A stretch of 64,000 nucleotides of DNA from positions 49,865-113,864 of the forward strand of contig JAGFBZ010000017.1 in assembly GCA_018398805.1 (NCBI GenBank), given 5' to 3'. Of the stretch, positions 6,001 through 62,580 are shown piece after piece. Source of the stretch: Hirundichthys speculiger. Lineage: Eukaryota; Chordata; Actinopteri; Beloniformes; Exocoetidae. A program made the translations under genes and the position numbers. Numbering within the stretch: the stretch's first letter is position 1; each line of letters starts with the position of its first letter. The notes under the pieces were generated by a model. It worked only from the letters and a program-made list of their open reading frames with translations, had not been told where the DNA came from and ran no database searches.

Positions 6001-9000
6001 GGCTCAACAGACGGGGGTCAACAGACGGGGTCAACAGACAGTGCTCAACAGATGGGGTTTAATAGACGGGGCTTACTAGACGGGGTCAACAGACAGGGTC
6101 AACAAATGGGGCTCAACAGACAGGGCTCAACAGACGGGGGTCAACAGACGGGGCTCAACAGACGGGGCTCAACAGACAATGCTCAACAGACGGGGCTTAA
6201 TAGAAGGGGGTCAAGAGACGGAGGTCAACAGACGGGGTCAACAGACAGGGCTCAACAGACGGGGCCAACAGACGGGGGTCAACAGACGGGGGTAACAGAC
6301 GGGGCCAACAGACGGGGCCAACAGACGGGGTCAACAGACGGGGTCAACAGACAGGGCTCAACAGACGCGGGTCAACAGAAGGGGTCAACGGACGGGGTCA
6401 ATAGACGGGGTCAACAGATGGGGCTTAATAGATGGGGGTCAACAGACGGGGTCAACAGATGGGGCTTAATAGACGGGGGTCAACAGACGGGGTCAACAGA
6501 TGGGGGTCAACAGATGGGGGTCAACAGGCGGGGTCAACAGACGGGGGTCAACAGACGGGGGTCAACAGATGGGATTTAATAGACGGGGTCAACGGACGGG
6601 GATTATTAGACGGGGGTCAACAGACAGGTTTAACGGATGGGGGTCAACAGACGGGGTCAACAGACGGGGGTCAACGGATGGGGCTTAATAGACGGGGGTC
6701 AACAGAAGGGGCTCAACAGACGGGGTCAACAGACAGGGCTTAACAGACGGGGGTCAACAGACAGGGCTCAACAGACGGGGCCAGCAGAAGGGGTCAACGG
6801 ACGGGTCAATAGACGGGGGTCAACAGATGGGGCTTAATAGATGGGGGTCAACAGACGTGGTCAACAGATGGGGCTTAATAGACGGGGGTCAACAGACAGT
6901 CAACAAATGGGGTCAACAGACAGGGCTCAACAGACGGGGGCTCAACAGACGGGGCTCAACAGACGGGGCTCAACAGACGGGGCTCAACAGACGGGGCTTA
7001 ATAGAAGGGGGTCAAGAGACGGAGGTCAACAGACGGGGTCAACAGACAGGGCTCAACAGACGGGGCCAACAGACGGGGGTCAACAGACGGGGGTAACAGA
7101 CGGGGCCAACAGACGGGGTCAACAGACAGGGCTCAACAGACGCGGGTCAACAGAAGGGGTCAACGGACGGGTCAATAGACGGGGTCAACAGATGGGGCTT
7201 AACGGAGGTCAACAGACGGGGTCAACAGATGGGGCTTAATAGACGGGGGACGGGGGTCAACAGATGGGGGGTCAACAGATGGGGGTCAACAGGCGGGGTC
7301 AACAGACGGGGGTCAACAGACGGGGGTCAACAGATGGGGTTCAATAGACGGGGTCAACGGACGGGGCTTATTAGACGGGGGTCAACAGACGGGTTTAACG
7401 GACGGGGGTCAACCGACGGGGTCAACAGACGGGGTCAACAGACGGGGGTCAACGGATGGGGCTTAATAGACGGGGGTCAACAGAAGGGGCTCAACAGACG
7501 GGGGTCAACAGACAGGGCTTAACAGACGGGGGTCAACAGACAGGGCTCAACAGACGGGGCCAGCAGAAGGGGTCAACGGACGGGTCAATAGACGGGGTCA
7601 ACAGATGGGGCTTAATAGATGGGGGTCAACAGACGGGGTCAACAGATGGGGCTTAATAGACGGGGGTCAACAGACAGAGTCAACAAATGGGGCTCAACAG
7701 ACAGGGCTCAACAGACGGGGGTCAACAGACGGGGCTCAACAGACGGGGCTCAACAGACGGGGCTCAACAGACGGGGCTTAATAGAAGGGGGTCAAGAGAC
7801 GGAGGTCAACAAACGGGGTCAACAGACAGGGCTCAACAGACGGGGCCAACAGACGGGGTCAACAGACGGGGGTAACAGACGGGGCCAACAGACGGGGTCA
7901 ACAGACAGGGCTCAACAGACGCGGGTCAACAGAAGGGGTCAACGGACGGGTCAATAGACGGGGTCAACAGATGGGGCTTAATAGACGGGGACGGGGTCAA
8001 CAGATGGGGCTTAATAGACGGGGGTCAACAGGGTCAACGGGGTCAACAGATGGGGGTCAACAGGCGGGGTCAACAGACGGGGGTCAACAGACGGGGGTCA
8101 ACAGATGGGGTTCAATAGACGGGGTCAACGGACGGGGCTTATTAGACGGGGGTCAACAGACGGGTTTAACGGACGGGGGTCAACCGACGGGGTCAACAGA
8201 CGGGGGTCAACAGACGGGGTCAACAGACGGGGGTCAACGGATGGGGCTTAATAGACGGGGGTCAACAGAAGGGGCTCAACAGACGGGGTCAACAGACAGG
8301 GCTTAACAGACGGGGGTCAACAGACAGGGCTCAACAGACGGGGCCAACAGACGGGGCTCAGCAGACGGGGTTTAATAGACCGGGGTCAACAGACAGGGCT
8401 CAACAGACGGGGTATAATAGACGGGGGTCACTAGACGGGGTCAACAGACAGGGTCAACAAACGAGGCTCAACAGACGGGGGTCAACAGACGGGGTCAACA
8501 GACAGGGCTCAACAGACGGGGTTTAATAGACGGGGCTTACTAGACGGGGTCATTCAGACAGGGTCAACAAATGGGGTTCAACAGATCGGGGTCAACAGAC
8601 GGGGTCAACAGACAGGGCTCAACAGACGGGGGCTCAACAGACGGGGGTCAACAGACAGGGCTCAACAGACGGGGTTTAATAGACGGGGCTTACTAGACGG
8701 GGTCAACAGATAGGGTCAACAAATGGGGCTCAACAGACAGGGCTCAACAGACGGGGCTCAACAGACGGGGCTCAACAGACGGGGCTTAATAGAAGGGGGT
8801 CAAGAGACGGAGGTCAACAGACGGGGTCAACAGACAGGGCTCAACAGACGGGGCCAACAGACGGGGTCAACAGACGGGGGGTAACAGACGGGGCCAACAG
8901 ACGGTGTCAACAGACAGGGCTCAACAGACGCGGGTCAACAGAAGGGGTCATCGGACGGGTCAATAGACGGGGTCAACAGATGGGGCTTAATAGACGGGGG

Positions 9001-12000
9001 TCAACAGACGGGGTCAACAGATGGGGCTTAATAGACGGGGGGTCAACAGACGGGGTCACAGATGGGGGTCAACAGATGGGGGTCAACAGGCGGGGTCAAC
9101 AGACGGGGGTCAACAGACGGGGGTCAACAGATGGGGTTCAATAGACGGGGTCAACGGACGGGGCTTATTAGACGGGGGTCAACAGACGGGTTTAACGGAC
9201 GGGGGTCAACGGACGGGGTCAACCAGACGGGGGTCAACAGACGGGGTCAACAGACGGTGTCAACAGACGGGGGTCAACGGATGGGGCTTAATAGACGGGG
9301 GTCAACAGAAGGGGGTCAACGGATGGGGCTCAACAGACGGGGGTCAACAGACGGGGTCAACAGACGGGGGTCAACAGACGGGGTCACAGACGGGGGTCAA
9401 CAGACGGGTCAACAGACGGGGTCAACATACGGGGTCAACAGACGGAGCTTAATAGACGGGGGTCAACAGACGGGGTCAACACACGGGGGGCTTAACAGAC
9501 GGGGGTCAACAGACGGAGCTTAACAGACGGGGGTCAACAGACGGGGGTCAACAGACGGGGCTCAACAGACGGGGGTCAACAGACGGGGGTCAACAGACGG
9601 GGGCTCAACAGACGGGGGTCAACAGACGGGGGTCAACAGAGGGGGTCAACAGACGGGGGCTCAACAGACAGGGCTCAACAGACGGGGGTCAACAGACGGG
9701 CTCAACAGACGGGTCTCAACAGACGGGGTCAACAGACGGGGGTCAACAGACGGGGCTCAACGGGGTCAAACAGACGGGGTCAACAGGGGGCTCAACAGAC
9801 GGGGCTCAACAGACGGGGCTCAACAGACGGGGGTCAACAGACGGTCTCAACAGACGGGTCTCAACAGACGGAGGTCAAAAGACGGGGGTCAACAGAGGGG
9901 GCTCAACAGACGGGGGTCAACAGACGGGGCTCACCAGACGGGGGTCAACAGACGGGGTCAACAGAGGGGTCAATAGATGGGGTCAACAGACGGGGCTTAA
10001 TAGACGGGGGTCAACAGACGGGATCAACAGATGGGATCAACAGACGGGGGTCAACAGATGGGGGACAACAGACGGGGGTCAACAGGTGGGGGTCAACAGA
10101 TGGGTCACCAGACGGAGGTCAACAGACGGGGTTCAATAGACGGGGTCAACGGACGGGGCTTAATAGACGGGGGTCACACAGACGGGGGACGGGGGTCAAC
10201 GGACGACGGGGTCAACAGACGGGAGTCAACAGGACGGGAGTCAACGACGGGGTCAAACGGACGACGGGTCAACAGACGGGGGTAAACAGACGGGGGTCAA
10301 CAGATGGGTCAACAGACGGGAGGGGGGTCAACAGACGGGGTTCAATAGACGGGGTCAACGGACGGGGCTTAATAGATGGGGGTCAATGGACGGGGCTTAA
10401 TAGACGGGGGTCAACAGAAGGGGGTCAACGGACGGGGCTCAAACAGAGAAGGGGGTCAACAGACGGGGGTCAACAGACGGGGCTTAATAGATGGGGGTCA
10501 ACAACGGGTCAACAACAGGGCTCAAACAGACGGGGTCAACAGATGGAGGTCAGACGGGGTCAACAGACGGGGCTTACTCACGGGGGTCAACAGACGGGGT
10601 CAACAGACGGGGCTTAACAGACTGGGGTCAACGACGGGGGCTTCAACAGACGGGGGTCAACAGACAGGGGCTTACAACAGACGGGGTCAAACAGATGGGG
10701 GTCAACACAGGGGGATCAACAGAAGGGGCGGGGTCAACAGACGGGGGTCAACAGACAGGGCTTAACAGACGGAGGTCAACAGACAGGGCTCAACAGGGGG
10801 CCAACAGACGGGGGTCAACAGACGGGGTAACAGACGGGGCTCAACAGAGGGGGCCTTAACATACGGGGGTCAACAGACGGGGCTTAACAGACGGGGGGCT
10901 TACAGACGGGGTCAACAGACGGGCAACAGACGGGGGTCACAGGGTCAACAGAACGGGGGTCAACAGAAGGGGTCAACAGACGGGGTCAACAGACAGGGCT
11001 TAACAGACGGGGGTCAACAGACAGGCTCAACAGACGGGTATAATAGACGGGGGTCACTAGGACGGGGTCAACAGGACAGGGTCAACAAACGGGGCTCAAC
11101 GACGGGTGGTCAACAGAGGGTCAACAATGGGGGCTCAAACAGACGGGGTCAACAGACGGGTCAACAGGGACACGGGGGTCAACAGACGGGATCAACAGAC
11201 AGGGCTCAACAGACGGGGTTTAATAGACGGGGCTTACTAGACGGGGTCAACAGACAGGGTCAACAATGGGGCTCAACAGACAGGGCTCAACAGACGGGGG
11301 TCAACACGGGGCTCAACAGACGGGGCTCAACAGAAGGGGGGGTCAAGAGACGGAGGTCAACAGACGGGGTCAACAGACAGGGCTCACACATACGGGGACA
11401 ACAGACGGGGGTCAACAGACGGGGTAACAGACGGGGCCAACAGACGGGGGGGGTCAACAGACAGGGCTCAACAGACGCGGGTCAACAGAAGGGATCAACG
11501 GACGGGTCAATAGACGGGGTCAACAGATATGGGGCTTAATAGACGGGGTCAACAACGGGGTCAACAGAGGGCTTAAAGGGGGGTCAACAGACGGGGTCAA
11601 CAGATGGGGGTCAACAGGACGGGGTCAACAGACGGGGGTCAACAGAGGGACGGGTGGTCAACAGACGGGAGTCAACAGATGGGGTTCAATAGACGGGGGT
11701 CAACGGACGGGCTTATTAGACGGGGGGTCAACAGGGGGGTCAACGGACGGGGGTCAGACGGGGACGGGGTCAACAGACGGGGGTCAACAACAGAGGGGGG
11801 GGGGTCAACGGGGGCAGATGGGGTAACAGACGGGGGTCAACAGAGGGGGTCAACAACGGATGGGGGCGGGTCAACGAGGGGACGGGGTCAACAGACGGGG
11901 TCAAGTCAACAGACGGGGGTCACAGACGGGGTCAACAGAACAGACGGGGGTCAAAAGACGGGGTCAACAGACGGGGTCAACACTAAAACGGGACGGGGTC

Positions 12001-12734
12001 AACAGACGGGGCTCAACAGACGGGGCTCAACAGACGGGTCAACAGACGGGGGTCAACACAGGGCTCAACAGGGTCAACAGCGGGGTTCAACAGACGGGGT
12101 CAACACGGGGTCACGGGGTAACAGACGGGGCTCAACAGACGGGGGTCAACAACGGGGGTCAAACCAGACGGGGTCAACAGACGGGGTCAACAGACGGGGT
12201 CAAAAGAGGGGTCAACAGGGGGCTCAACGACGGGGCTCAACAGACGGGCTCAACAGACGGGGTCAACAGACGGGTCTCAACCAGACGGGTCTCACAGACG
12301 GGTCAACAGACGGGGTCAACAGACGGGGGTTAACGAGGGGCTCAACAGACGGGGCTCAACAGACGGGGGTCAACAGACGGGGCTCAACAGACGGGGTCAA
12401 CAGACGGGGGTCAACAGAGGGGGCTCAACAGACGGGGCTCAACAGACAGGGCTCAACAGACGGGGGTCAACAGACGGGTTCAACAGATGGGGCTCAGCAG
12501 ACGGGGCTCAACAGACGGGGCTCAACAGACGGGGCCAACAGACGGGGGTCAACAGACGGGGCTTAACAGACAGGGTTTAACAGACGGGTGTCAACAGACG
12601 GGGGTCAACAGACGGGGGTCAACAGACGGGGTCAACAGACGGGTCAATAGACGGGATCAACGGACGGGGCTTAATAGATTGGGGTCAACAGAAGGGGTCA
12701 ACAGACGGGTGTCAACAGACGGGGTCAACAGACG
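1..12734. repeat. Minisatellite A, 13-14 bp unit, G-rich on + strand
   Basis: The whole interval is a tandem array of a 13-14 bp unit with core GGGGTCAACAGAC. Variants include GGCTCAACAGAC, GGCTTAATAGAC and GGGTCAACGGAC. The length alternates because the G run is 3 to 6 bases. The array ends abruptly at about 12734, where ordinary AT-rich DNA begins. The left end lies outside the window. The rare variant GGGGCTTATTAGAC (or GGGGATTATTAGAC) recurs at about 362, 1096, 1846, 2872, 5334, 6598, 7363, 8134, 9160 and 11709, which reveals a higher-order structure. Many + strand frames stay open because the common unit contains no stop in any phase; the proteins would be low-complexity (NRRGQQTGSTDG-like) and are not called as genes. 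Units are irregular, with small indels, at about 3.0-5.1 kb and 10.2-12.35 kb. Confidence 0.97.
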
Positions 12735-14128: not shown

Positions 14129-15294
14129 AATCCGTCCAGCTGCTCCTCATTCCGGGTCAGTCTGTCATCCCTGAGCCAGGAGCTCCGGGTCCATCTGAGC
14201 CACTGGTTCTGTCTGCTCTCCAGAGTCTGCTCCGACCTGTACCTGAGACGGGCTGTCGCTCAGCACAGCGGTCTGCTGCAGAAAATGAAACAGACTCTGA
14301 GCCTGCTCGGTCTACAGGTCCTGGTTCTGATGGAGCAGTACGTGTACGCTGTTCTGTTGGCTGTAGGCCAGGCTGAACCGGACTCTGTGCCCAGGGAGGT
14401 CCTGGAGGATGTTGTAGCAGGAGCGGAGCTGTACAACCAGGCGGTGGAGGAGCAGCACAGCGCCCCCCAGTGGAGGGAGGCGGTACTGAAGCAGGCGCAG
14501 CGTTCCACACCGTCTCCGGTTCTGTCACAGACCCGGCGGCGTCATCCGAGACCTGTCTCAGTCAGAGACCTCATTACCATTCTCGCCGCACATCACGCAC
14601 AAACAACAGCCAATCAGCTGCTCAGCTGGACTTCTGAGCAGAGCTGCCAGATGTTTGTGGCCCCGCCCACCCTCAGAGCGTGCTCAGATGGCAGTGCTGG
14701 TCCAGTGAACTGGTCCAGCTGTGGGAAGCCTGACTGGACCCAGGAACAGAGACAGCACACCAACCTCACTGACCGGCCCTCGATGCCATCCTCGTCTGCT
14801 CCTGACTCCGACCCTCATCTGGACCCAACCGTCCTGAAACACCACCGACCCAGACAAGGCAGCCGGTGCCGGCGCCAACCACACCCGTCCCAGTCTGGTG
14901 CCAGTCACGTTTGTGTGGAAACGTTTGACCTGCACCAACAGACCAGTTCCTCCCTCCGGGTCTCAGCCCCGCCTCCTCCGAGGCTTCTCCAGGTGGACGG
15001 CTCCTCAGCAGAGGCGCTGTTTCAGGTTCTGGTTTCCTCCAGGGACCTACTGGTTCCACTCGTACCTCACAGACCAGCAGGAGAACCAGTAGAACACCAG
15101 AACCCAGTTACAGCAGCAGATGTGCTTAACTGGAAGATGGACTCGGTGAGTTTAGGTGCTCCAGTCAGCAATGCTGACCACTCAGAGGTTCTGAATGGAC
15201 CCGCTGAGACCGTGAACAGGTGCCAGAATGTGGAAGGATCCCAGCCGGACCAGGCTGAACTTGATCTGGCTGCAAGGCCAGATGTTCCTGACAG
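14129..15294 (+). CDS. ccdc142: ccdc142 large exon (visible exon 1)
   Basis: The acceptor is a pyrimidine-rich tract ending TCCTCTAG at 14128 and the donor is CAG|GTGAGG at 15295. The frame is open for 388 codons and leaves two bases (AG), which are completed by the first base of the exon at 30301. The first 140 or so residues are leucine-rich and probably helical, for example MKQTLSLLGLQVLVLMEQYV at 14285. Residues encoded by about 14700-15290 are rich in Ser, Pro, Gln and His and look weakly conserved. The ATG at 14285 is internal, because the frame is open back to the acceptor, so it should not be taken as the gene start. Codon use is GC-rich compared with the AT-rich introns on both sides. 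The exact acceptor is inferred from sequence, not from a transcript. Confidence 0.85.
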
Positions 15295-16300: not shown

Positions 16301-16680
16301 CCCCAGGCCCGGCACTAGGGTGGCACCCCAGGAATGGCTCTAGGGTGGCACCCCAGGAATGGCTCTAGGGTTGCGCCCCAGGCCTAGCTCTAGGGTTGCG
16401 CCCCAGGAATGGCTCTAGGATGGCGCCCCAGGCCTGGCTCTATAGTGGTGCCCCAGGCCCGGCTCTAGGGTGGCGCCCCAGGCCCGGCTCTAGGGTGGCG
16501 CCCTAGGCTTGGCTCTAGGGTGGCGCCCCAGGCCCGGCTTTAGGGCGGCGCCCCAGGCTCGGCATTAGGGCAGAGCCCCAGGCCCGGCTCTAGGTCGGCG
16601 CCCCAGGCCCGGCTTTAAGGCGGCGCCCCAGGCCCGGCTCTAGGGCGGCACCCCAGGCCCGGCTCTAGGGTGGCGCCCCA
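16301..16680. repeat. 25-bp minisatellite, about 15 copies
   Basis: Tandem units carry the core GGCTCTAGGGTGGCGCCCCA followed by GGCCC. Variation is light, for example GGTGGCACCCCAGGAATGG in the first copies. The period is 25 bp over 380 bp. Most units contain the palindrome GGCGCC. The array sits between two LINE pieces, which suggests that it expanded inside or beside the LINE insertion. Confidence 0.95.
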
Positions 16681-16824
16681 GCCCTCCTAATCCTGATCAG
16701 GACCCCAGACATCCAGCTCCTGATAGACTTCTCTCTACACAAGTCAGTGGAATTGATCTTAGTCTGGCCCGTCCCCCAGGACCAGTTTACTTACCAGTAT
16801 CGCTCCTGGGAGCATTTTGGGGCA
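16681..16824. other. Unassigned intronic DNA between minisatellite and LINE piece
   Basis: Ordinary single-copy-looking sequence, possibly more LINE. No motif is recognised with confidence. Confidence 0.4.
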
Positions 16825-17003
16825 CGTCAGCTTATCCGCCATTATGTGGTGGGCGGTGCACAGACTGGTCGACAGCTGTGGGTAGTGACTGGAAGACTGA
16901 GATGGAGGATTCAGCTGCAGGGTGGCTGGACTCTCCGTTAGAGATAAGGAGAGAGACTCGGAGCAGAGTCACTGCTCCTCCACATGAAGAGGAGGTCACC
17001 ACC
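16825..17003 (+). mobile_element. LINE C-terminal coding fragment, + orientation (segment U)
   Basis: The stretch GCAGGGTGGCTGGACTCTCC, followed by TTAGAGATAAGGAGAG and a block ending CACATGAAGAGGAG, corresponds to the teleost LINE region that encodes the residues just before the conserved 'RSQLRWLGHLVRMP' block. The match is from memory of this widespread family. The fragment stops where the next LINE segment (segment V, 29993-30045, opposite strand) would be expected to begin. Confidence 0.7.
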
Positions 17004-17110
17004 TCCTCCTCTCCATGATGCACCATGATACACCATCAGGAGGACGCAATGGTGTTCCCAGGCCAGTCCAGAGATGTAATCTCTTGAGAGTGTCCTGGGT
17101 CTGCCTCAGG
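17004..17110 (-). mobile_element. LINE coding fragment, - orientation (segment W), left edge of satellite B
   Basis: Read on the minus strand, this segment translates as GRPRTLSRDYISGLAWE directly after the last satellite B unit (...CPTRRRP). It matches the LINE C-terminal motif 'GRRPRGRPRTRWRDYISRLAWERLG'. One stop codon and several substitutions mark it as dead. It is the downstream continuation, in LINE sense, of the sequence from which satellite B was amplified. Confidence 0.8.
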
Positions 17111-20100
17111 GCCTCCTCCTGGTTGGACATGTCTGAAACGCCTCCTCCTGGTTGGACATGTCTAAAACGCCTCCTCCTGGTTGGACGTGTCTGAAACGCC
17201 TCCTCCTGGTTGGACGTGTCTGAAATGCCTCCTCCTGTTTGGACGTGTCTGAAACGCCTCCTCCTGGTTGGACGTGTCTAAAACGCCTCCTCCTGGTTTG
17301 ACGTGTCTGAAATGCCTCCTCCTGGTTGGACGTGTCTGAAACGCCTCCTCCTGGTTGGACGTGTCTGAAACGCCTCCTCCTGGTTGGACGTGTCTGAAAC
17401 GCCTCCTCCTGGTTGGACGTGTCTGAAACACCTCCTCCTGGTTGGACGTGTCTGAAACGCCTCCTCCTGGCTGGACGTGTCTGAAACACACCTCCTCCTG
17501 GTTGGACGTGTCTGAAACACCTCCTCCTGGTTGGACATGTCTAAAACGCCTCCTCCTGGTTGGACATGTCTAAAACGCCTCCTCCTGGTTGGACGTGTCT
17601 GAAACGCCTCCTCCTGGTTGGACGTGTCTAGAACAACTCCTCCTGGTTGGACATGTCTGAAACACCTCCTCCTGGCTGGACGTGTCTGAAACACCTCCTC
17701 CTGGTTTGACGTGTCTGAAACACCTCCTACTGGCTGGACATGTCTAAAACACCTTCTCCTGGTTTGACGTGTCTGAAACACCTCCTCCTGGTTGGACATG
17801 TCTGAAACACCTCCTCCTGGCTGGACATGTCTGAAACACCTCCTCCTGGTTGGACATTTCTGAAACACTTCCTCCTGGTTGGACATGTCTGAAACACCTC
17901 GTCCTGGCTGGTCATGCCTGAAACACACCTCCTCCTGGTTGGACGAGTCTGAAACACCTCCTCCTGGTTGGACGTGTCTAAAACGCCTCCTCCTGGTTTG
18001 ACGTGTCTGAAATGCCTCCTCCTGGTTGGACGTGTCTGAAACGCCTCCTCCTGGTTGGACGTGTCTGAAACGCCTCCTCCTGGTTGGACGTGTCTGAGAC
18101 GCCTCCTCCTGGTTGGACGTGTCTGAAACACCTCCTCCTGGTTGGATGTGTCTGAAACGCCTCCCCCTGGTTGAACGTGTCTGAAACGCCTCCTCCTGGT
18201 TAGACGTGTCTGAAACGCCTCCCCCTGGTTGGACGTGTCTGAAACACCTCCTCCTGGTTGGACGTGTCTGAAACACCTCCTCCTTGCTGGACGTGTCTGA
18301 AACGCCTCCTCCCGGTTAGATGTGTATGAAACGCCTCTTCCCGGTTGGATGTGTCTGAAACGCCTCCCCCTGGTTGGACGTGTCTGAAACACCTCCTCCT
18401 GGTTGGACGTGTCTGAAACACCTCCTCCTTGCTGGACGTGTCTGAAACACCTCCTCCTGGTTGGACGTGTCTGAAAAACGCCTCCTCCTAGTTGGACGTG
18501 TCTAAAACGCCTCCTCCTGGTTGGACGTGTCTGAAACGCCTCCTCCTGATTGGACGTGTCTGAAACGCCTCCATCTGGTTGGACGTGTCTGAAACACCTC
18601 CTCCTGGCTGGATGGACATGTCTGAAACGCCTCCTCCTGGTTGGACGTGTCTGAAACGCATCCCCCTGGTTGGACGTGTCTGAAACGCCTCCTCCTGGTT
18701 GGACGTGTCTGAAACGCCTCCTCCCGGTTGGACGTGTCTGAAACGCCTCCTCCCGGTTGGAAGTGTCTGAAACGCCTCCTCCTGGTTGGACGTGTATGAA
18801 ACGCCTACTCCCGGTTGGACATGTCTGAAACGCCTCCTCCCGGTTGGATGTGTATGAAACGCCTCCTCCCGGTTGGATGTGTCTGAAACGCCTCCTCCTG
18901 GCTGGACGTGTCTGAAACACCTCCTCCTGGTTTGACGTGTCTGAAACGCCTCCTCCTGGTTGGACGTGTCTGAAACGCCTCCTCCTGGTTTGACGTGTCT
19001 GAAACGCCTCCTCCTGGTTGGACGTGTCTGAAACGCCTCCTCCTGGTTGGACGTGTCTGAAACACCTCCTCCTGGTTGGACGTGTCTGAAACGCCTCCTC
19101 CTGGTTGGACGTGTCTGAAACGCCTCCTCCTGGTTGGACGTGTCTGAAACACCTCCTCCTAGTTGGACATTTTTAAAACGCCTCCTCCTGGTTGGACATG
19201 TCTAAAACGCCTCCTCCTGGTTGGACGTGTCTGAAACGCCTCCTCCTGGTTGGACGTGTCTAGAACAACTCCTCCTGGTTGGACATGTCTGAAACACCTC
19301 CTCCTGGCTGGACGTGTCTGAAACACCTCCTCCTGGTTTGACGTGTCTGAAACACCTCCTACTGGCTGGACATGTCTAAAACACCTTCTCCTGGTTTGAC
19401 GTGTCTGAAACACCTCCTCCTGGTTGGACATGTCTGAAACACCTCCTCCTGGTTGGACATGTCTGAAACACCTCCTCCTGGTTGGACATTTCTGAAACAC
19501 TTCCTCCTGGTTGGACATGTCTGAAACACCTCGTCCTGGCTGGTCATGCCTGAAACACACCTCCTCCTGGTTGGACGTGTCTGAAACACCTCCTCCTGGT
19601 TGGACGTGTCTGAAACGCCTCCTCCTGGTTGGACGTGTCTGAAACGCCTCCTCCTGGTTGGACGTGTCTGAAACGCCTCCTCCTGGTTGGACGTGTCTGA
19701 AAACGCCTCCTCCTGGTTTGACGTGTCTGAAACGCCTCCTCCTGGTTGGACGTGTCTGAAACGCCTCCTCCTGGTTGGACGTGTCTGAAACGCCTCCTCC
19801 TGGTTGGACGTGTCTGAAACGCCTCCTCCTGGTTGGACGTGTCTGAAACACCTCCTCCTGGTTGGATGTGTCTGAAACGCCTCTCCCTGGTTGTCTGAAC
19901 GTGTCTGAAACGCCTCCTCCTGGTTGGACGTGTCTGAAATGAAACGCCTCCTCCTCCTGGTTGGACGTGTCTGAAACACCTCCTCCTGGTTGGACGTGTC
20001 TGAAACGCCTCCTCCTGGTTGGACGTGTCTGAAAAACGCCTCCTCCTGGTTGGACGTGTCTGAAAACGCCTCCTCCTGGTTGGACGTGTCTGAAACGCCT

Positions 20101-23100
20101 CCTCCTGGTTGGACGTGTCTGAAACGCCTCCTCCTGGTTGGACGTGTCTGAAACGCCTCCTCCTGGTTGGACGTGTCTGAAACGCCTCCTCCTGGTTGGA
20201 TGGACGTGTCTGAAACGCCTCCTCCTGGTTGGACGTGTCTGAAACGCCTCCTCCCGGTTGGACGTGTCTGAAACGCCTCCTCCTGGTTGGACGTGTCTGA
20301 AACGCCTCCTCCCGGTTGGACGTGTCTGAAACGCCTCCTCCTGGTTGGACGTGTCTGAAACACGCCTCCTCCTGGTTTGGACGTGTCTGAAACGCCTCCT
20401 CCTGGTTGGACGTGTCTGAAACGCCTCCTCCTGGTTGGACGTGTCTGAAACGCCTCCTCCTGGTTGGACGTGTCTGAAACGCCTCCTCCTGGTGGACGTG
20501 TCTGAAACACCTCCTCCTGGTTTGGACGTGTCTGAAACGCCTCCTCCTGGTTGGACGTGTCTGAAAACGCCTCCTCCTGGTTGGACGTGTCTGAAAAACG
20601 CCTCCTCCTCCTGGTTGGACGTGTCTGAAACGCCTCCTCCTGGTTGGACGTGTCTGAAACGCCTCCTCCTGGTTGGACGTGTCTGAAACACCTCCTCCTG
20701 GTTGGACGTGTCTGAAACGCCTCCTCCTGGTTGGATGACGTGTCTGAAACGCCTCCTCCCTGGTTGGACGTGTCTGAAACGCCTCCTCCTGGTTGGACGT
20801 GTCTGAAACGCCTCCTCCTGGTTGGACGTGTCTGAAACGCCTCCTCCTGTTTGGACGTGTCTGAAACGCCTCCTCCTGGTTGGACGTGTCTGAAAACGCC
20901 TCCTCCTGGTTGGACGTGTCTGAAACGCCTCCTCCTCCTGGTTGGACGTGTCTGAAAACGCCTCCTCCTGGTTGGACGTGTCTGAAACGCCTCCTCCTGG
21001 TTCCTCTGTTGACGTGTCTGAAACGCCTCCTCCTGGTTGGACGTGTCTGAAACGCCTCCTCCTGGTTGGACGTGTCTGAAACACCTCCTCCTGGTTGGAC
21101 GTGTCTGAAACGCCTCCTCCTGGTTTGACGTGTCTGAAATGCCTCCTCCTGGTTGGACGTGTCTGAAACGCCTCCTCCTGGTTTGACGTGTCTGAAACAC
21201 CTCCTCCTGGTTGGACGTGTCTGAAACACCTCCTCCTGGTTGGACATGTCTGAAACACTTCCTCCTAGTTGGACATGTCTGAAACACCTCGTCCTGGCTG
21301 GTCATGTCTGAAACACACCTCCTCCTGGTTGGACGAGTCTGAAACACCTCCTCCTAGTTGGAAATTTCTAAAACGCCTCCACCTGGTTGGACATGTCTAA
21401 AACGCCTCCTCCTGGTTGGACGTGTCTGAAACGCCTCCTCCTGGTTGGACATGTCTGAAACACCTCCTCCTGGTTGGACGTGTCTAGAACAACTCCTCCT
21501 GGTTGGACATGTCTGAAACACCTCCTCCTGGCTGGACGTGTCTGAAACACCTCCTCCTGGTTTGACGTGTCTGAAACACCTCCTCCTACCTGGACATGTC
21601 TAAAACACCTTCTCCTGGTTTGACGTGTCTGAAACACCTCCTCCTTGTTGGACATGTCTGAAACACCTTCCTCCTGGCTGGACATGTCTGAAACACCTCC
21701 TCCTGGTTGGACATGTCTGAAACACTTCCTCCTGGTTGGACATGTCTGAAACACCTCGTCCTGGCTGGTCATGCCTGAAACACACCTCCTCCTGGTTGGA
21801 CGTGTCTGAAACACCTCCTACTGGTTGGACATGTCTAAAACGCCTCCTCCTGGTTGGACGGGTCTGAAACGCCTCCTCCTGGTGGACGTCTGAAACATCC
21901 TCCTGGTTTGGACGTGTCTGAAACGCCTCCTCCTGGTTGGACGTGTCTGAAAACGCCTCCTCCTGGTTTGACGTGTCTGAAACGCCTCCTCCTGGTTGGA
22001 CGTGTCTGAAACGCCTCCTCCGGTTGGATGTGTATGAAACGCCTCTTCCCGGTTGGATGTGTCTGAAATGCCTCCCCCTGGTTGGACGTGTCTGAAACCC
22101 CTCCTCCTGGTTGGACGTGTCTGAAACACCTCCTCCTTGCTGGACGTGTCTGAAACGCCTCCTCCTGGTTGGACGTGTCTGAAACGCCTCCTCCTGGTTG
22201 GACGTGTCTAAAACGCCTCCTCCTGGTTGGACGTGTCTGAAACGCCTCCCCCTGGTTGGACGTGTCTGAAACGCCTCCATCTGGTTGGACATGTCTGAAA
22301 CACCTCCTCCTGGTTGGATGGACGTGTCTGAAACGCCTCCCCCTGGTTGGACGTGTCTGAAACGCCTCCCCCTGGTTGGACGTGTCTGAAACGCCTCCTC
22401 CCGGTTGGACGTGTCTGAAACGCCTCCTCCGGGTGGAACGTGTCTGAAACGCCTCCTCCCGGTTGGACGTGTCTGAAACGCTTCCTCCCGGTTGGATGTG
22501 TATGAAACGCCTCCTCCCGGTTGGATGTGTCTGAAACGCCTCCTCCTGGTTGGACGTGTCTGAAACGCCTCTTCCCGGTTGGACGTGTCTAAAACGCCTC
22601 CTCCTGGCTGGACGTGTCTGAAACACCTTCTCCTCGTTCGACGTGTCTGAAACGCCTCCTCCTGGTTGGACATGTCTAAACCGCCTCCTCCTGGTTTGAC
22701 GTGTCTGAAACACCTCCTCCTGTTTGGACGTGTCTGAAACGCCTCCTCCTGGTTGGACGTGTCTGAAACGCCTCCTCCTGGTTGGACGTGTCTGAAACGC
22801 CTCCTCCTGGTTGGACGTGTCTGAAACGCCTCCTCCTGGTTGGACGTGTCTAAAACACCTCCTCCTAGTTGGACGTGTCTGAAACTCCTCCTCCTGGTTG
22901 GACGTGTCTGAATCGCCTCCTCCTGGTTGGACGTGTCTGAAACACCTCCTGTTTGGACGTGTCTGAAACGCCTCCTCCTGGTTGGACATGTCTGAAACAC
23001 CTCCTCCTGGTTGGACGTGTCTAGAACAACTTCTCCTGGTTGGACATGTCTGAAACACCTCCTCCTGGTTGGACGTGTCTGAAACACCTCCTCCTGGTTT

Positions 23101-26100
23101 GACGTGTCTGAAACACCTCCTCCTGCCTGGACATGTCTAAAACACCTTCTCCTGGTTTGACGTGTCTGAAACACCTCCTCCTTGTTGGACATGTCTGAAA
23201 CACCTCGTCCTGGCTGGACATGTCTGAAACACCTCCTCCTGGTTGGACATGTCTGAAACACTTCCTTCTGGTTGGACATGTCTGAAACACCTCGTCCTGG
23301 CTGGTCATGCCTGAAACACACCTCCTCCTGGTTGGACGTGTCTGAAACACCTCCTACTGGTTGGACATGTCTAAAACGCCTCCTCCTGGTTGGACGGGTC
23401 TGAAACGCCTCCTCCTGGTTGGACGTGTCTGAAACACCTCCTCCTGTTGGACGTGTCTGAAACGCCTCCTCCTGGTTGGACGTGTCTAAAACGCCTCCTC
23501 CTGGTTTGACGTGTCTGAAATGCCTCCTCCTGGTTGGACGTGTCTGAAACGCCTCCTCCCGGTTGGATGTGTATGAAACGCCTCTTCCCGGTTGGATGTG
23601 TCTGAAATGCCTCCCCCTGGTTGGACGTGTCTGAAACGCCTCCTCCTGGTTAGACGTGTCTGAAACGCCTCCTCCCGGTTGGACGTGTCTAAAACGCCTC
23701 CTCCTGGCTGGACGTGTCTGAAACACCTTCTCCTGGTTCGACGTGTCTGAAACGCCTCCTCCTGGTTGGACATGTCTAAACCGCCTCCTCCTGGTTTGAC
23801 GTGTCTGAAACACCTCCTTCTGTTTGGACGTGTCTGAAACGCCTCCTCCTGGTTGGACGTGTCTGAAATGCCTCCTCCTGGTTGGACGTGTCTGAAACGC
23901 CTCCTCCTGGTTGGACGTGTCTGAAATGCCTCCTCCTGGTTGGACGTGTCTAAAACACCTCCTCCTGGTTGGACGTGTCTGAAACTCCTCCTCCTGGTGT
24001 TGTTGACGTGTCTGAAACACCTCCTGGTTTGGACGTGTCTGAAACGCCTCCTCCTGGTTGGACGTGTCTGAAACGCCTCCTCCTGGTTGGACGTGTCTGA
24101 AAACGCCTCCTCCTGGTTGGACGTGTCTGAATGGTCTGAAAACCTCCTCCTGGTTGGACGTGTCTGAAACGCCCTCCTGGTTGGACGTGTCTGAAAACGC
24201 CTCCTCCTGGTTGGACGTGTCTGAAACACCTCCTCCTAGTTGGACATGTCTGAAACTCCTCCTCCTGGTTGGACGTGTCTGAAACGCCTCCTCCTGGTTG
24301 GACGTGTCTGAAAACACCTCCTGTTTGGACGTGTCTGAAACGCCTCCTCCTGGTTGGTGTGGAAACACCTCCTCCTGGTTTGTCTGAAACACCTCCTCCT
24401 GGTTGGACGTGTCTGAAACACCTCCTCCTGGTTTGACGTGTCTGAAACACCTCCTCCTGCCTGGACATGTCTAAAACACCTTCTCCTGGTTTGACGTGTC
24501 TGAAACACCTCCTCCTTGTTGGACATGTCTGAAACACCTCGTCCTGGCTGGACATGTCTGAAACACCTCCTCCTGGTTGGACATGTCTGAAACACCTTCT
24601 GGTTGGACATGTGAAACACCTCGTCCTGGCTGGTCATGCCTGAAACACACCTCCTCCTGGTTGGACGTGTCTGAAACACCTCCTACTGGTTGGACATGTC
24701 TAAAACGCCTCCTCCTGGTTGGACGGGTCTGAAACGCCTCCTCCTGGTTGGACGTTTCTGAAACACCTCCTCCTGTTTGGACGTGTCTGAAAAGCCTCCT
24801 CCTGGTTGGACGTGTCTAAAACGCCTCCTCCTGGTTTGACGTGTCTGAAATGCCTCCTCCTGGTTGGACGTGTCTGAAACGCCTCCTCCCGGTTGGATGT
24901 GTATGAAACGCCTCTTCCCGGTTGGATGTGTCTGAAATGCCTCCCCCTGGTTGGACGTGTCTGAAACCCCTCCTCCTGGTTGGACGTGTCTGAAACACCT
25001 CCTCCTCTGGCTGGACGTGTCTGAAACGCCTCCTCCTGGTTGGACGTGTCTGAAACGCCTCCTCCTGGTTGGACGTGTCTAAAACGCCTCCTCCTGGTTG
25101 GACGTGTCTGAAACGCCTCCCTCCTGGTTTGGACGTGTCTGAAACGCCTCCTCTGGTTGGACGTGTCTGAAACGCCTCCTCCTGGTTGGACGTGTCTGAA
25201 AACGGTCTGAAACGCCTCCCCCTGGTTGGACGTGTCTGAAACGCCTCCTCCCGGTTGGACGTGTCTGAAACGCCTCCTCCCGGTTGGACGTGTCTGAAAC
25301 GCCTCCTCCCGGTTGGATGTGTATGAAACGCCTCCTCCCGGTTGGATGTGTCTGAAACGCCTCTTCCCGGTTGGACGTGTCTGAAACGCCTCCTCCCGGT
25401 TGGACGTGTCTGAAACGCCTCTTCCCGGTTGGACGTGTCTAAAACGCCTCCTCCTGGTTGGACGTGTCTGAAACACCTTCTCCTCGTTCGACGTGTCTGA
25501 AACGCCTCCTCCTGGTTGGACATGTCTAAACCGCCTCCTCCTAGTTTGACGTGTCTGAAACACCTCCTTCTGTTTGGACGTGTCTGAAACGCCTCCTCCT
25601 GGTTGGACGTGTCTGAAATGCCTCCTCCTGGTTGGACGTGTCTGAAACGCCTCCTCCTGGTTGGACGTGTCTGAAACGCCTCCTCCTGGTTGGACGTGTC
25701 TGAAAACACCTCCTCCTAGTTGGACGTGTCTGAAACTCCTCCTCCTGGTTGGACGTGTCTGAATCGCCTCCTCCTGGTTGGACGTGTCTGAAACACCTCC
25801 TGTTTGGACGTGTCTGAAACGCCTCCATCTGGTTGGACATGTCTGAAACACCTCCTCCTGGTTGGATGGACGTGTCTGAAACGCCTCCCCTGGTTGGACG
25901 TGTCTGAAAACGCCTCCCTGGTTGGACGTGTCTGAAACGCCTCCTCCCGGTTGGACGTGTCTGAAAAAGCCTCCTCCCTGGTTGAACGTGTCTGAAACGC
26001 CTCCTCCCGGTTGGACGTGTCTGAAACGCTTCCTCCCGGTTGGATGTGTATGAAACGCCTCCTCCCGGTTGGATGTGTCTGAAACGCCTCCTCCTGGTTG

Positions 26101-29100
26101 GACGTGTCTGAAACGCCTCTTCCCGGTTGGACGTGTCTAAAACGCCTCCTCCTGGCTGGACGTGTCTGAAACACCTTCTCCTCGTTCGACGTGTCTGAAA
26201 CGCCTCCTCCTGGTTGGACATGTCTAAACCGCCTCCTCCTAGTTTGACGTGTCTGAAACACCTCCTCTGTTTGGACGTGTCTGAAACGCCTCCTCCTGGT
26301 TGGACGTGTCTGAAACGCCTCCTCCTGGTTGGACGTGTCTGAAACGCCTCCTCCTGGTTGGACGTGTCTGAAACACCTCCTCCTGGTTGGACGTGTCTGA
26401 AACGCCTCCTCCTGGTTGGACGTGTCTGAATCGCCTCCTCCTGGTTGGACGTGTCTGAAACCCCTCCTGTTTGGACGTGTCTGAAACGCCTCCTCCTGGT
26501 TGGACGTGTCTGAAACGCCTCCTCCTGGTTGGACGTGTCTGAAACGCCTCTCCTGGTTGGACGTGTCTGAAAACGCCTCCTCCTGGTTGGACGTGTCTGA
26601 AGTCCTCCTCCTGGTTGGACGTGTCTGAAATGCCTCCTCCTGGTGACTGGACGTGTCTGGAAACGCCTCCTCCTGGTTGGACGTGTCTGAAAAACGCCTT
26701 CCTCCTGGTTGGACGTGTCTGAAAACCTGCCTCCCCTGGTTGGACGTGTCTGAAACCGCCTCCTCCTGGTTTTGTGTGTCTGAAACGCCTCCTCCTGGTT
26801 GGATGTGTCTGAAATGCCTCCTCCTGGTTGGACGTGTCTGAAACGCCTCCTCCTTGTTGGACGTGTCTGAAAACGCCTCCTCCTGGTTTGGACGTGTCTG
26901 AAAAAACAAAAAAACCCCTCCCTGGTTGGACGTGTCTGAAAACGCCTCCTCCGGTTGGACGTGTCTGAAACCTCCTCCTGGTGGAACGTGTCTGAAAACG
27001 CCTCCTCCTGGTTGGACGTGTCTGAAACGCCTCCTCCCGGTTGGACGTGTATGAAACGCCTACTCCCGGTTGGACATGACTGAAACGCCTCCTCCCGGTT
27101 GGATGTGTATGAAACGCCTCTTCCCGGTTGGATGTGTCTTAAAAGCCTCCCCCTGGTTGGACGTGTCTGAAACCCCTCCTCCTGGTTGGACGTGTCTGAA
27201 ACACCTCCTCCTTGTTGGACGTGTCTGAAACGCCTCCTCCTGGTTGGACGTGTCTGAAACGCCTCCTCCTGGTTGGGACCTAAAACGCCTCCTCCTGGTT
27301 GGACGTGTCTGAAACGCCTCCTCCTGGTTGGACGTGTCTGAAACGCCTCCCCCTGGTTGACGTGTCTGAAACGCCTCCTCTGGTTGGACATGTCTGAAAC
27401 GCCTCCTCCTGGTTGGATGGACGTGTCTGAAACGCCTCCCCCTGGTTGGACGTGTCTGAAAACGCCTCCCCCTGGTTGGACGTGTTGTCTGAAACGCCTC
27501 TCTCCCGGTTAGACGTCCCCTGTGGAAACGTGTCTGAAACGCCTCCTCCCGGTTGGAACGTGTCTGAAACGCCTCTCCCTGGTTGGACGTGTCTGAAACG
27601 CCTTCCTCCTGGTTGGATGTGTATGAAAACGCCTCCTCCGGTTGGACGTGTCTGAAACGCCTCCTCCTGGTTGGACGTGTCTGAAACGCCTCCTCCCGGT
27701 TGGACGTGTCTAAAACGCCTCCTCCTGGCTGGACGTGTTTGAAACAAACCTCCTCCTCGTTCGACGTGTCTGAAACGCCTCCTCCTGGTTGGACATGTCT
27801 AAACCGCCTCCTCCTAGTTTGACGGTGTCTGAAACACACCTCCTCCTGGTTGGACGTGTCTGAAAACCTCATCCTGGTTGGACTGTCTGAAACGCCTCCT
27901 TCCTGGTTGGACGTGTCTGAAACGCCTCCTCTGGTGGACGTGTCGTCTCCAAACGACTCCTCTGAATGGTGGTCTGGGTGTGAAAACTCCTCCTGGTTTG
28001 TCTGAAACGCCTTCCTGGTTGGAGTGTATGAAAAACACTCCTCCTGGTTGGACGTGTCTGAAGTCCTCCTGTGGACGTGTTGGAAAATCCTCTGGTTGGA
28101 CTGTCTGAAACGCCTCCTGGTTGGTTGTCTGAACGTGTCTGAAACGCCTCCTCCTGACGTTGGACGTGTCTGAAACGCCTCCCCTGACGCCTCCTCTCTG
28201 GTTGGACGGTCTGAAACGCCTCCTGGACCTGGACGTTTGTCATGTGAAAAACTAAACCTCTCCGGTTGGACGGTCCGCCTCCTCCTGTCTGGACTGTGTG
28301 AAACACCCTCCTGGTTGGACGTGTCTGAAACGCCTCCTCCTGGTTGGACGTGTCCTGAAAAGCCTCCTCTGGTTTGGACGTGTCTGAAACGCCTCCTCCT
28401 GGTTGGACGTGTCTGAAAACGCCTCCTCCTGGTTGGACGTGTCTGAAACGCCTCCTCCTGGTTGGACGTGTCTGAAGTTGGACGTCTCCTCCTGGTTGGA
28501 CGTGTCTGAAACTCCTGAAACGCCTCCTCTGGTTGGACGTGTCTGAAACACCTCCTCCTGGTTGGACGTGTCTGAAACGCCTCCTCCTGGTTGGACGTGT
28601 CTGAAACGCCTCCTCCTGGTTGGACGTGTCTGAAACGCCTCCTCCTGGTTGGACGTGTCTGAAAAACACCTCCTCCTGGTTGGACGTGTCTGAAACCGCC
28701 TCCTCCTGGTTGGACGTGTCTGAAACACCTCCTCCTGGTTGGATGGATGTGTCTGAAACGCCTCCTCCTGGTTGGACGTGTCTGAAACGCCTCCTCCTGG
28801 TTGGACGTGTCTGAAACGCCTCCTCCTGGTTGGACGTGTCTGAAACGCCTCCTCCTGGTTGGACGTGTCTGAAACGCCTCCTCCTGGTTGGACGTGTCTG
28901 AAACGCCTCCTCCTGGTTGGACGTGTCTGAAACGCCTCCTCCTGGTTGGACGTGTCTGAGACGCCTCCTCCTGGTTGGACGTGTCTGAAACGCCTCCTCC
29001 TGGTTGGACGTGTCTGAACGCCTCCTCTGGTTCTGAAACGCCTCTCCTGGTTGTTGAACCCGGGTGGACGTGTCTGAAACGCCTCCTCCTGGTTGGACGT

Positions 29101-29992
29101 GTCTGAAACGCCTCCTCCTGGTTGGACGTGTCTGAAAGCCTCCCTCCTCCTGGTTGGACGTGTCTGAAACACCTCCTCCTGTTTGGACGTGTCTAAAACG
29201 TCTCCTCCCGGTTTGACGTGTCTGAAACGCCTCCCCCTGGTTGGACGTGTCTGAAACGCCTCCTCCCAGTTGGACGTGTCTGAAACGCCTCCTCCCGGTT
29301 GGACGTGTATGAAACGCCTTCTCCCGGTTGGACGTGTATGAAACGCCTCTTCCCGGTTGGACGTGTCTGAAACGCCTCCTCCTGGCTGGACGTGTCTGAA
29401 ACACCTCCTCCTGGTTTGACGTGTGTGAAACACCTCCTCCTGGTTGGACGTGTCTAAATCACCTCCTCCTTGTTTGACGTGTCTGAAAAGCCTCCTCCTG
29501 GTTGGACGTGTCTGAAACACCTCCCCCTGGTTGGACGTGTCTGAAACGCCTCCTCCCGGTTGGACGTGTATGAAACGCCTCCTCCCGGTTGGACGTGTAT
29601 GAAACGCCTCTTCCCGGTTGGACTCGTCTGAAACGCCTCCTCCTGGCTGGACGTGTCTGAAACACCTCCTCCTGGTTTGACGTGTGTGAAACACCTCCTC
29701 CTGGTTGGACGTGTCTAAACCGCCTCCTCCTGGTTTGACGTGTCTGAAACGCCTCCTCCTGGTTGGACGTGTCTGAAACGCCTCCTCCTGGTTGGAAGTG
29801 TCTGAAACGCCTCCTCCTGGTTGGATGGACGTGTCTGAAACGCCTCCTCCTGGTTGGACGTGTCTAAACCGCCTCCTCCTGGTTTGATGTGTCTGAAACG
29901 CCTCCTCCTGGTTGGACGTGTCTGAAACGCCTCCTCCTGGTTGGACGTGTCTGAAACGCCTCCTCCTGGTTGGACGTGTCTGAAACACCTCC
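17111..29992. repeat. Minisatellite B, 29-bp unit, about 444 copies, LINE-derived
   Basis: A 12.9-kb tandem array of a 29-bp unit whose + strand core is GCCTCCTCCTGGTTGGACGT followed by GTCTGAAAC. On the minus strand the unit encodes VFQTCPTRRR-like peptides that resemble 'VFRACPTGRR' of the flanking LINE. Because 29 is not a multiple of 3, every frame passes through all three phases. The common unit has no stop in any minus-strand phase, so very long antisense frames (up to about 930 codons at 21600-24392) appear in all three frames. Each + strand frame meets TGA once per 87 bp, so the + strand is closed except where indels intervene. Marker variants (GTCCTGGCTGGTCATG at 17901, 19533, 21291, 21758, 23293 and 24623) show large-scale internal duplication. 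Confidence 0.97.
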
Positions 29993-30045
29993 AGACTCAT
30001 GAACAGGTGACCCACCTTAGCTGGCTCCTTCTTATGAATGATAAC
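29993..30045 (-). mobile_element. LINE coding fragment, - orientation (segment V), right edge of satellite B
   Basis: On the minus strand this reads KKEPAKVGHLFMSLEVFQT running straight into the first satellite unit. It corresponds to the LINE block 'RSQLRWLGHLVRMP...GEVFRACPTGRR'. It is the upstream LINE neighbour of the 29-bp unit, on the same strand as the downstream neighbour at 17004-17110. The satellite is therefore enclosed in a single LINE insertion. Confidence 0.8.
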
Positions 30046-30300: not shown

Positions 30301-30599
30301 CTCTGGACCTCTAAAGGGCGAGGACAAGGACAAACAGAAAGGACTGGTGACCGGGGCGGCAGTGGTTCCGGACTCTGCTCGCTGGCTTCCCTCCGTTCAG
30401 TGGCTGGACCTGGGTTGGCCTCTGGTCCTGGCTGACCTGCTGGGCCAGTATCGAGCTCTGCTTTGGACTCTGTGCAACAAAGCCCTGTGGTTGAAGCTGC
30501 ATGTTCCTCCAGCAGGAAGCTCTTCAGGCAGCATCAACCTCCAGGACGACCACAGCAGCGTCCAGATCCTGAACGGGATGGTCCAAGCTTCAGAGACAG
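30301..30599 (+). CDS. ccdc142: ccdc142 exon 2
   Basis: The acceptor is TTGTGTTTTCTAG at 30300. The first base completes the split codon from exon 1 (AG+C, Ser). The exon encodes a charged linker (GEDKDKQKG) and then WLPSVQWLDLGWPLVLADLL and GQYRALLWTLCNKALWLKL, the best-conserved stretch, which resembles the human CCDC142 segment 'WSQYWTLLWAACAQSLDL'. The proposed donor is ACAG|GTCATC at 30600. It is weak at positions +3 to +6 but is the only site that gives the phase needed by exon 3, producing a Gly codon across the junction. Confidence 0.88.
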
Positions 30600-40355: not shown

Positions 40356-40863
40356 CAATGGTATTATGACAAAAAAACAATCTTTTAACAATAAAAATGT
40401 TGTGACACTGTGGAATTGGAGAATTTACAGGAAAAGCTCTTGATTTCAGGACAGAAAACTGTAGTTATATTAAATACACAATTTGACATCTGATCTGAGA
40501 ACGATCTAAAGATGATCTGATGAGGGTTTGAGGATGGTCTGAGGACTAGATCACCGGTCACCATGGCAACCTGAACACATCTATACACACACGTGGAAGC
40601 ACAACAAACTACTGGAAAGAAAATGGAGCACAGTTAGAGTAATGAGGTCCTCCTAATAAACTATTCTATTCTATTCTATTCTATTCTATTCTATTCAATG
40701 ATTTGATGCTAGAACTCAGTAAACCATCAGAGGGGGGGTCTGTACTGCATCCCAGAGCTGGTCTCTTAGATTCTTCTCACTGAGGACAAACGAGTCCAGA
40801 ACATCTGCTCTGCTCATGAGAATGGAACTGAATGGCTGCTGATCACAGGTCACCTGTCCACAG
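40356..40863. other. Intron 4, right end
   Basis: Contains degenerate AT-rich repeat DNA like that in intron 1, a CTATT pentanucleotide tract at 40661-40696 and the exon 5 acceptor (CACCTGTCCACAG). Nothing else is recognised. Confidence 0.6.
40661..40696. repeat. (CTATT)n microsatellite
   Basis: Seven perfect CTATT pentanucleotides. Confidence 0.95.
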
Positions 40864-62503: not shown

Positions 62504-62580
62504 CACTGGAGGTGTGTTCCCTGGAGTGACAAATCATATGAGAGTTAAGGCAGGTGAGCGAATACTTTTGGCAATATAGT

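What the first reader, a model, noticed from the sequence alone, without database searches (positions are those of the whole stretch)
17004..30045. Satellite B is a 29-bp piece of LINE coding sequence amplified about 444 times in place
Seen: minus-strand sequence on both sides of the array continues one LINE reading frame. The right edge reads KVGHLFMSLEVFQT into the array, and the left edge reads from CPTRRRP into GRPRTLSRDYISGLAWE. Known: teleost LINEs of one abundant family carry 'LGHLVRMP...GEVFRACPTGRRPRGRPRTRWRDYISRLAWERLG' near the C-terminus. The satellite unit covers exactly the VFRACPTGRR stretch. Inference: a 12.9-kb minisatellite was born inside a single LINE insertion in an intron of ccdc142. 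Cases in which the founder and both flanks are still readable are uncommon.
Basis: partly seen in the sequence, partly recalled or inferred. Interest (0 to 1): 0.85.

Follow-up and report, generated by a model that had tools for sequence, protein, structure and literature searches.

The report
Minisatellite grown from a LINE fragment
In a fish gene's intron, a 29-base scrap of an old jumping gene (LINE) has been copied in place about 440 times into a 12.9-kb tandem array; the LINE around it is still recognisable, and half of it appears to be flipped, which makes a clear example of an already known way that minisatellites arise.

Summary
The array is real: 17111-29992, minus-strand unit GTTTCAGACACGTCCAACCAGGAGGAGGC, 441 units plus a 6-bp start. 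The unit matches a fish LINE C-terminal profile at positions 88-98, EVFRACPTGRR (0 of 300 shuffled units as good). The left flank continues the same frame through one stop codon: GRPRTLSRDYISGLAWEH, positions 101-118 (0 of 100 shuffles; tblastn E=1.4e-12). The right flank is weaker: IRRSQLRW, positions 66-73 (0 of 100 shuffles, narrow margin), and 22 nt are missing before the unit. So the array most likely grew in place from LINE coding DNA. The likeliest history is one LINE copy whose distal part was inverted. The founder carries GGAGG twice, exactly 29 bp apart, as the Haber-Louis model expects (about 0.5% by chance). Blocks of 212-406 bp recur 1.3-3.5 kb apart in the array. The host intron is in ccdc142. 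LINE-derived minisatellites are a known kind. Orthologous introns and same-species LINE DNA could not be tested.

The parts
14129..15294 (+). ccdc142 coding exon before the intron
   Evidence: Open frame, AG before and GT after; aligns to Sander lucioperca CCDC142 (P0122, 58% over 172 aa) and to unnamed proteins, the best 61% over 388 aa. No Pfam match of its own
16867..16992 (+). LINE part A: profile positions 14-68 (LWVMTERT...LLLHIER), opposite strand to the array's LINE
   Evidence: Frameshift-tolerant profile score 123.3, best of 100 shuffles 53.2, z 21; tblastn best E 3e-4
16993..17051 (.). Junction stretch between the two LINE parts; not assigned. Holds most of an 8-bp inverted repeat with a 4-bp loop (16989-17008, reaching 4 bp into part A) and a 10-bp tandem pair (17015-17034)
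   Evidence: Read directly from the sequence
17052..17110 (-). LINE part B, distal side: positions 99-118, P*GRPRTLSRDYISGLAWEH
   Evidence: Score 101.7 for positions 101-118, 0 of 100 shuffles; tblastn E 1.4e-12 together with the last unit; frame through the stop
17111..29992 (-). 29-bp minisatellite, 441 units plus a 6-bp start; unit = LINE positions 88-98 (EVFRACPTGRR)
29988..29992 (-). GGAGG at the proximal edge; its partner GGAGG is at 17112-17116 in the last unit. In the joined founder they are exactly 29 bp apart
29993..30035 (-). LINE part B, proximal side: positions 66-73 (IRRSQLRW), then GHLF and a stretch 22 nt short of the LINE
   Evidence: Score 49.2, 0 of 100 shuffles, z 4.8, narrow margin; tblastn E 0.004 together with part of the array
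30301..30598 (+). Next ccdc142 exon; splices in frame to 15294
   Evidence: Joined reading frame open for 488 aa; P0122 residues 313-402, 60% identity. No Pfam match of its own

Best explanation
A copy of a teleost LINE (probably the Rex3/RTE type) sat in an intron of ccdc142. Its distal coding part now lies inverted next to its proximal part. In the inverted part, a 29-bp stretch bounded by the direct repeat GGAGG was duplicated by slippage or unequal exchange between the two GGAGG copies, leaving flanking LINE sequence on each side. The dimer then grew to about 441 units, in part by duplication of multi-unit blocks. The array is non-coding: 29 is not a multiple of 3, and it lies in an intron. 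No function is needed to explain it. Shown: unit and flank identity (right flank weakly), strand, collinearity, GGAGG spacing, repeated blocks. Inferred: the inversion, its order relative to amplification, the slippage step, and the absence of function.
For: Unit matches LINE positions 88-98, 0 of 300 shuffles; left flank positions 101-118, with the last unit in the same frame without indel; right flank positions 66-73. 632 proteins at E<=1e-3 match the LINE query; of the 120 listed, every one that carries a species name is from a fish. By pattern, 96 of those 120 hold the unit motif once, 24 do not match the pattern, 0 hold it twice, and 0 hold the other two reading frames of the array. GGAGG pair at lag 29: the only run of 4 or more among 186 lag positions; chance 0.48%. 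Part A ends at position 68 and part B begins at 66, and the two show no nucleotide overlap beyond chance. Repeated blocks of 406, 288, 218 and 212 bp at lags 1632, 3548, 1334 and 1536 bp; adjacent non-consensus units are rarely the same type (1.1% at lag 1). ccdc142 homology on both sides of the intron.
Against: The right flank alone is weak: E 0.004, against a background of E 0.007 and 0.016 elsewhere in the window, and two overlapping non-LINE tiles score higher (54 against 49). The internal junction is GGAGGC in 297 of 442 rows and GGAGGT in 126; simple slippage inside GGAGG would first give T, so a base change or a break one base further on is needed. Neighbouring units are slightly more alike than average (0.901 at lag 1 against 0.876), so single-unit or few-unit steps also took part. 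No same-species LINE DNA and no orthologous intron could be read. The LINE 3' end was not found right of the array on the plus strand; target-site duplications were not looked for.
Confidence: 0.85

Rival explanations
1. Two separate LINE insertions lie tail to tail; the array grew in one of them, and no inversion took place.
For: Many proteins of this family are on record from fishes, so two insertions in one intron are not far-fetched; no 3' end was found, so the order of events is not recorded.
Against: Part A ends within about three residues of where part B begins, and the two do not overlap at nucleotide level beyond chance (214 of 300 shuffles as good). Two independent truncations would rarely meet so closely: by my rough estimate about 7 in 166 positions of the profile, fewer on a whole LINE.
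Confidence: 0.25
2. The LINE already carried a tandem array when it inserted, and the array is multi-locus.
For: Some transposons carry internal tandem repeats (LTR12 in PMC3389668).
Against: By pattern, 0 of 120 held LINE proteins show a second unit or the other array frames. A search with 210 residues translated from the right edge and array found nothing at E<=1e-3 among the 7,993 candidates scored, though such a search is weak for repeats. The window's genome could not be searched.
Confidence: 0.07
3. The array is an unrelated satellite, and its likeness to LINE coding sequence is chance.
For: The unit is short; the right flank match is weak.
Against: 0 of 300 shuffled units and 0 of 100 shuffled left flanks reach the observed scores; unit and left flank sit at adjacent LINE positions in the same frame.
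Confidence: 0.02
4. Array length or composition is partly an assembly artefact.
For: Units around 27.7-28.5 kb are indel-rich: 24 of 26 units in one block have indels, against 0-14 of 26 in the other blocks.
Against: Specific multi-unit blocks are retained at differing lags; both edges are clean.
Confidence: 0.2

Closest known systems
Transposon-derived minisatellites of human (Ahmed and Liang 2012, PMC3389668, section 3 read)
   Same: A stretch inside a transposon copy is tandemly duplicated and expands locally; 300 of 7,276 are flanked by 5-20 bp direct repeats, as here.
   Different: Of the 6,817 that neither flanking repeats nor a truncated end unit explain, the majority have only two units, and the long example described has 17 units of an Alu. 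This one has about 441 units from a fish LINE, with part of the LINE on the other strand.
Haber-Louis model of minisatellite birth (as described in PMC6947457 section 3.1 and PMC3389668 section 3.4; the original paper not seen)
   Same: Short direct repeats (5-10 bp) bound the future unit; here GGAGG at exactly the period.
   Different: The junction base is mostly C, not the T that slippage within GGAGG would first give.
LINE ORF2-derived satellites: PROsat (LINE-1, Phodopus), Pvc 20 (LINE-1, harbour seal), HinfI (CR1 3' UTR and partial ORF2, chicken), listed in PMC9659126
   Same: The tandem unit comes in whole or part from LINE coding sequence.
   Different: Those are listed as satellite DNAs; this is a short-unit array at one intronic place with founder flanks readable. 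I saw table rows and passages only.
Fish tandem repeats linked to transposons: minisatellites co-localised with transposons in Tetraodon (Fischer et al. 2004) and MALREP of swamp eel (Suntronpong et al. 2020)
   Same: Tandem repeats and transposons linked in fish.
   Different: Seen only as titles in the reference list of PMC7599744; whether any unit is LINE coding sequence was not checked.
Rex3 non-LTR retrotransposon of teleosts (PMC6274825)
   Same: Widespread in teleosts; 7 of 120 held LINE proteins match a loose pattern for read-through into GATG repeats, 3 of them with DGWMDG. A figure legend of the review gives GCG(GAA)2(GATG)n as the Rex3 tail; its text in one place says GATC.
   Different: The family name was not tested against a Rex3 reference sequence.

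Membership tests
LINE-derived minisatellite | Tandem unit of 10-100 bp, head to tail | tested here: met
   29 bp, 441 units, one orientation
LINE-derived minisatellite | Unit is a stretch of a LINE | tested here: met
   Profile positions 88-98, 0 of 300 shuffles
LINE-derived minisatellite | Both flanks are the adjacent LINE positions in the same order and strand | tested here: met
   Left strong (0 of 100, z 13-16), right weak (0 of 100, z 4.8, narrow margin, and below two background tiles)
LINE-derived minisatellite | Related species show the unexpanded LINE at the same place | not testable with these tools
   No fish genome could be read; the genome search not answered in nine calls
Haber-Louis minisatellite | Direct repeat of 5-10 bp at the unit's spacing in the founder | tested here: met
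   GGAGG, lag 29, chance about 0.5%
Rex3 (RTE clade) LINE | Tail of GATG repeats | tested here: inconclusive
   7 of 120 family proteins match a loose read-through pattern, 3 with DGWMDG; no 3' end was found for this copy
Rex3 (RTE clade) LINE | Reverse transcriptase of the RTE clade | not tested
   Only C-terminal pieces were found here; P0018 and P0089 had no Pfam match at E<=0.1
Twin-primed LINE (5' inversion; definition recalled) | Inverted 5' part precedes the sense 3' part | tested here: not met
   Order read along part B is sense B (66 to 118), then antisense A (68 to 14)

The most novel reading that the evidence does not exclude
The C-terminal coding region of this abundant fish LINE is a standing nursery for minisatellites. 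The GGAGG pair spaced 29 bp, encoded by the conserved GEV and GRR codons, would prime the same duplication again and again, so that unrelated fishes carry independently born arrays of this unit at different sites.
Probability: 0.15. Interest if true: 0.6.

Novelty: new member of a known kind. Interest (0 to 1): 0.35.

Why it matters
Here unit, both founder flanks, the short direct repeat at the exact period and an inverted neighbouring LINE piece can all be read in one intron, so the order of insertion, inversion, duplication and growth could be dated by comparing sister species. Ahmed and Liang found that known mechanisms explain the start of only 6% of human transposon-derived repeats (abstract); this is a case in which a known mechanism fits. 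The kind of event itself is well known.

Tried and rejected
Twin priming as the source of the inversion: rejected, because the order of the two LINE parts is the wrong one. Snap-back palindrome at the 16989-17008 inverted repeat: rejected by eye, because the sequence beyond the 8-bp arms is not complementary. Remaining LINE 3' end on the plus strand right of 29993: not found (score 36.4, 8 of 100 shuffles as good). A first profile alignment with lenient gaps gave a high null (2 of 60 shuffles reached the left minus score; the left plus and right minus scores were reached by 0 of 60) and was replaced by stricter penalties. A first homology count at the junction left out the 6-bp start and gave 0; corrected. 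A first unit count by regular expression reported only best matches and was replaced by the alignment. Hairpin-driven expansion: two-unit DNA folds are ordinary (27 and 14 of 200 shuffles fold at least as well). LINE DNA in viral and prokaryote collections with these queries: none (in 17 and 18, 35 and 302 stretches matched a short pattern but none was confirmed). Protein search with translated array: none. Paper searches for a fish LINE-derived minisatellite of this kind listed none that I recognised from titles and abstracts; the listings were partial (20 of 112, 4 of 4, 10 of 20, 0, 10 of 2,713, 7 of 7), one search was too loose to be useful, and papers outside the open library were not searched.

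Full report
What is there. Window 17111-29992 is a head-to-tail array of a 29-bp unit. TRF gives 440.2 copies; a wraparound alignment gives 441 units plus a 6-bp start, GGAGGT, at the right edge, with 126 of 442 rows equal to the consensus in all columns and 326 of 442 rows free of indels; mean identity to consensus is 94.9% over units with no missing column. A 16-bp core of the unit occurs 198 times exactly in this orientation and 0 times in the other, and nowhere else in the window at up to two mismatches.

The unit is LINE coding sequence. A 95-residue query for the C-terminus of a teleost LINE found 632 proteins at E<=1e-3 out of 666 candidates; 120 are listed, and those of the 120 with species names are all from fishes. 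A profile from 110 of these 120 matches the unit at positions 88-98, EVFRACPTGRR against EAFQTRPTRRR, a score that 0 of 300 shuffled units reach; five other tandem units of the window score 25-36 against 51.

The flanks. With the array left out, the left flank on the minus strand reads GRPRTLSRDYISGLAWEH = positions 101-118, 13 of 18 residues like the consensus (counted by eye), 0 of 100 dinucleotide shuffles as good. With the last unit it reads EAFQTCPTRRRP*GRPRTLSRDYISGLAWEH with no indel and one stop; tblastn E is 1.4e-12, and 116 of 120 proteins have a match there at the loose cut-off of E 10. The right flank is weaker: IRRSQLRW = positions 66-73, score 49.2 against a best shuffle of 45.7, and E 0.004 by tblastn with part of the array (87 of 120 proteins at the same loose cut-off). 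Window background reaches E 0.007 and 0.016, and two overlapping non-LINE tiles score 54, so the right flank counts mainly because it falls at the expected place and strand. Between W (73) and V (89) it is 22 nt shorter than the LINE (counted).

At 16867-16992, on the plus strand, lies a second LINE piece, positions 14-68, score 123.3, best of 100 shuffles 53.2, z 21. It ends where the minus-strand part begins (66-68), and the two show no nucleotide overlap beyond chance (214 of 300 shuffles as good). Left to right the order is A sense (14 to 68), B antisense distal (118 to 99), array, B antisense proximal (73 to 66). That is what an inversion of the distal half of a plus-strand LINE would leave. 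Twin priming would give the opposite order. Two LINE copies tail to tail remain possible. 59 bp at the junction (16993-17051) are unassigned; they hold most of an 8-bp inverted repeat and a 10-bp tandem pair.

How it began and grew. Joining the two flanks around one unit gives ...GGAGGTGTTTCAG...CCAGGAGGAGGCCC..., in which GGAGG stands twice exactly 29 bp apart. It is the only run of four or more among 186 positions at that lag; 0.48% of 20,000 shuffles and 0.64% of all founder breakpoints with periods 10-60 have five or more. This is the arrangement of the Haber-Louis model as described in PMC6947457 (abstract, section 3.1, figures and tables read) and PMC3389668 (abstract and section 3 read). 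A snag: slippage within GGAGG would first make GGAGGT junctions, but 297 of 442 rows have C and 126 T. Later growth included block duplication: 406, 288, 218 and 212 bp at lags of 1632, 3548, 1334 and 1536 bp, with at least 199 of 200 bases alike in every 200-bp window, and with 22-84 departures from the consensus, so that they are not mere consensus runs; two further matches, at lags 29 and 58, are. Neighbouring non-consensus units are of the same type in only 1.1% of cases, yet neighbours are slightly more alike than average (0.901 against 0.876), so small steps also took part.

The gene. Exons 14129-15294 and 30301-30598 join in one open frame of 488 aa. Sander lucioperca CCDC142 (P0122) matches both sides in order, 58% and 60% identity; of the 10 proteins found, it alone reaches across the intron. 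The two exons have no Pfam match themselves, but a further ORF, 40770-41150, has the Pfam CCDC142 domain at E 3.6e-11. The array therefore lies in a 15,006-bp intron of a teleost ccdc142. The species was not identified: the best relative is 61% identical and unnamed.

Known or new. LINE-derived and LINE ORF2-derived tandem repeats are known: PROsat, Pvc 20 and chicken HinfI are listed in PMC9659126 (passages seen), and 7,276 transposon-derived repeats, 23% of minisatellites, are counted in human. For fish, titles of papers that link transposons with minisatellites or satellites are in the reference list of PMC7599744 (passages seen). The Rex3 name is a lead only: a GATG-repeat tail is given for Rex3 in a figure legend of PMC6274825, whose text also says GATC (passages seen), and 7 of 120 family proteins match a loose read-through pattern, 3 with DGWMDG. 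I file this as a new member of a known kind, notable for its size, the readable founder and the split LINE.

Limits. No fish genome could be searched: the genome search did not complete, and the viral and prokaryote collections gave no relative with the queries used. So the orthologous intron, same-species LINE DNA and other copies of the array remain unchecked. Target-site duplications were not looked for.

Noticed in passing
window 3-12734: A 12.7-kb array of a 14-bp-type unit (GGGGGTCAACAGAC and variants, about 930 copies by TRF) just before the ccdc142 exon; more degenerate than the 29-bp array (75% against 86% matches).
   Followed up: no
window 43036-48372 and 53953-60491: Two long arrays of the same 34-bp unit (ACAAACGCTCTCTAAAACTGGCGACATTCACCCG) enclose about 5.6 kb that holds the same coding-like stretch three times (in ORFs at 49347, 51285 and 53015).
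   Followed up: no
window 60673-63218: A broken hAT/ZBED-like transposase reading frame (named from memory, not searched) followed directly by a 42-bp, 15-copy array at 62582-63218: perhaps a second transposon-linked minisatellite.
   Followed up: no
window 41431-42098: Tc1-like transposase remnant on the minus strand (named from memory from the ORFs).
   Followed up: no
window 27745-28483: Indel-rich stretch of the 29-bp array: 24 of 26 units in one block carry indels, against 0-14 of 26 in the other blocks; real decay or consensus error.
   Followed up: partly
window 17015-17034: A 10-bp tandem pair (ATGATGCACC/ATGATACACC) right beside the LINE junction, next to an 8-bp inverted repeat.
   Followed up: no
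window 16301-16681: A third small array (25 bp, 15 copies) within 200 bp of the opposite-strand LINE piece. Tiles over it score 54 against the LINE profile, below the highest shuffle of the left flank (65.9), so it is not LINE by this test; its unit alone scores 35.
   Followed up: partly
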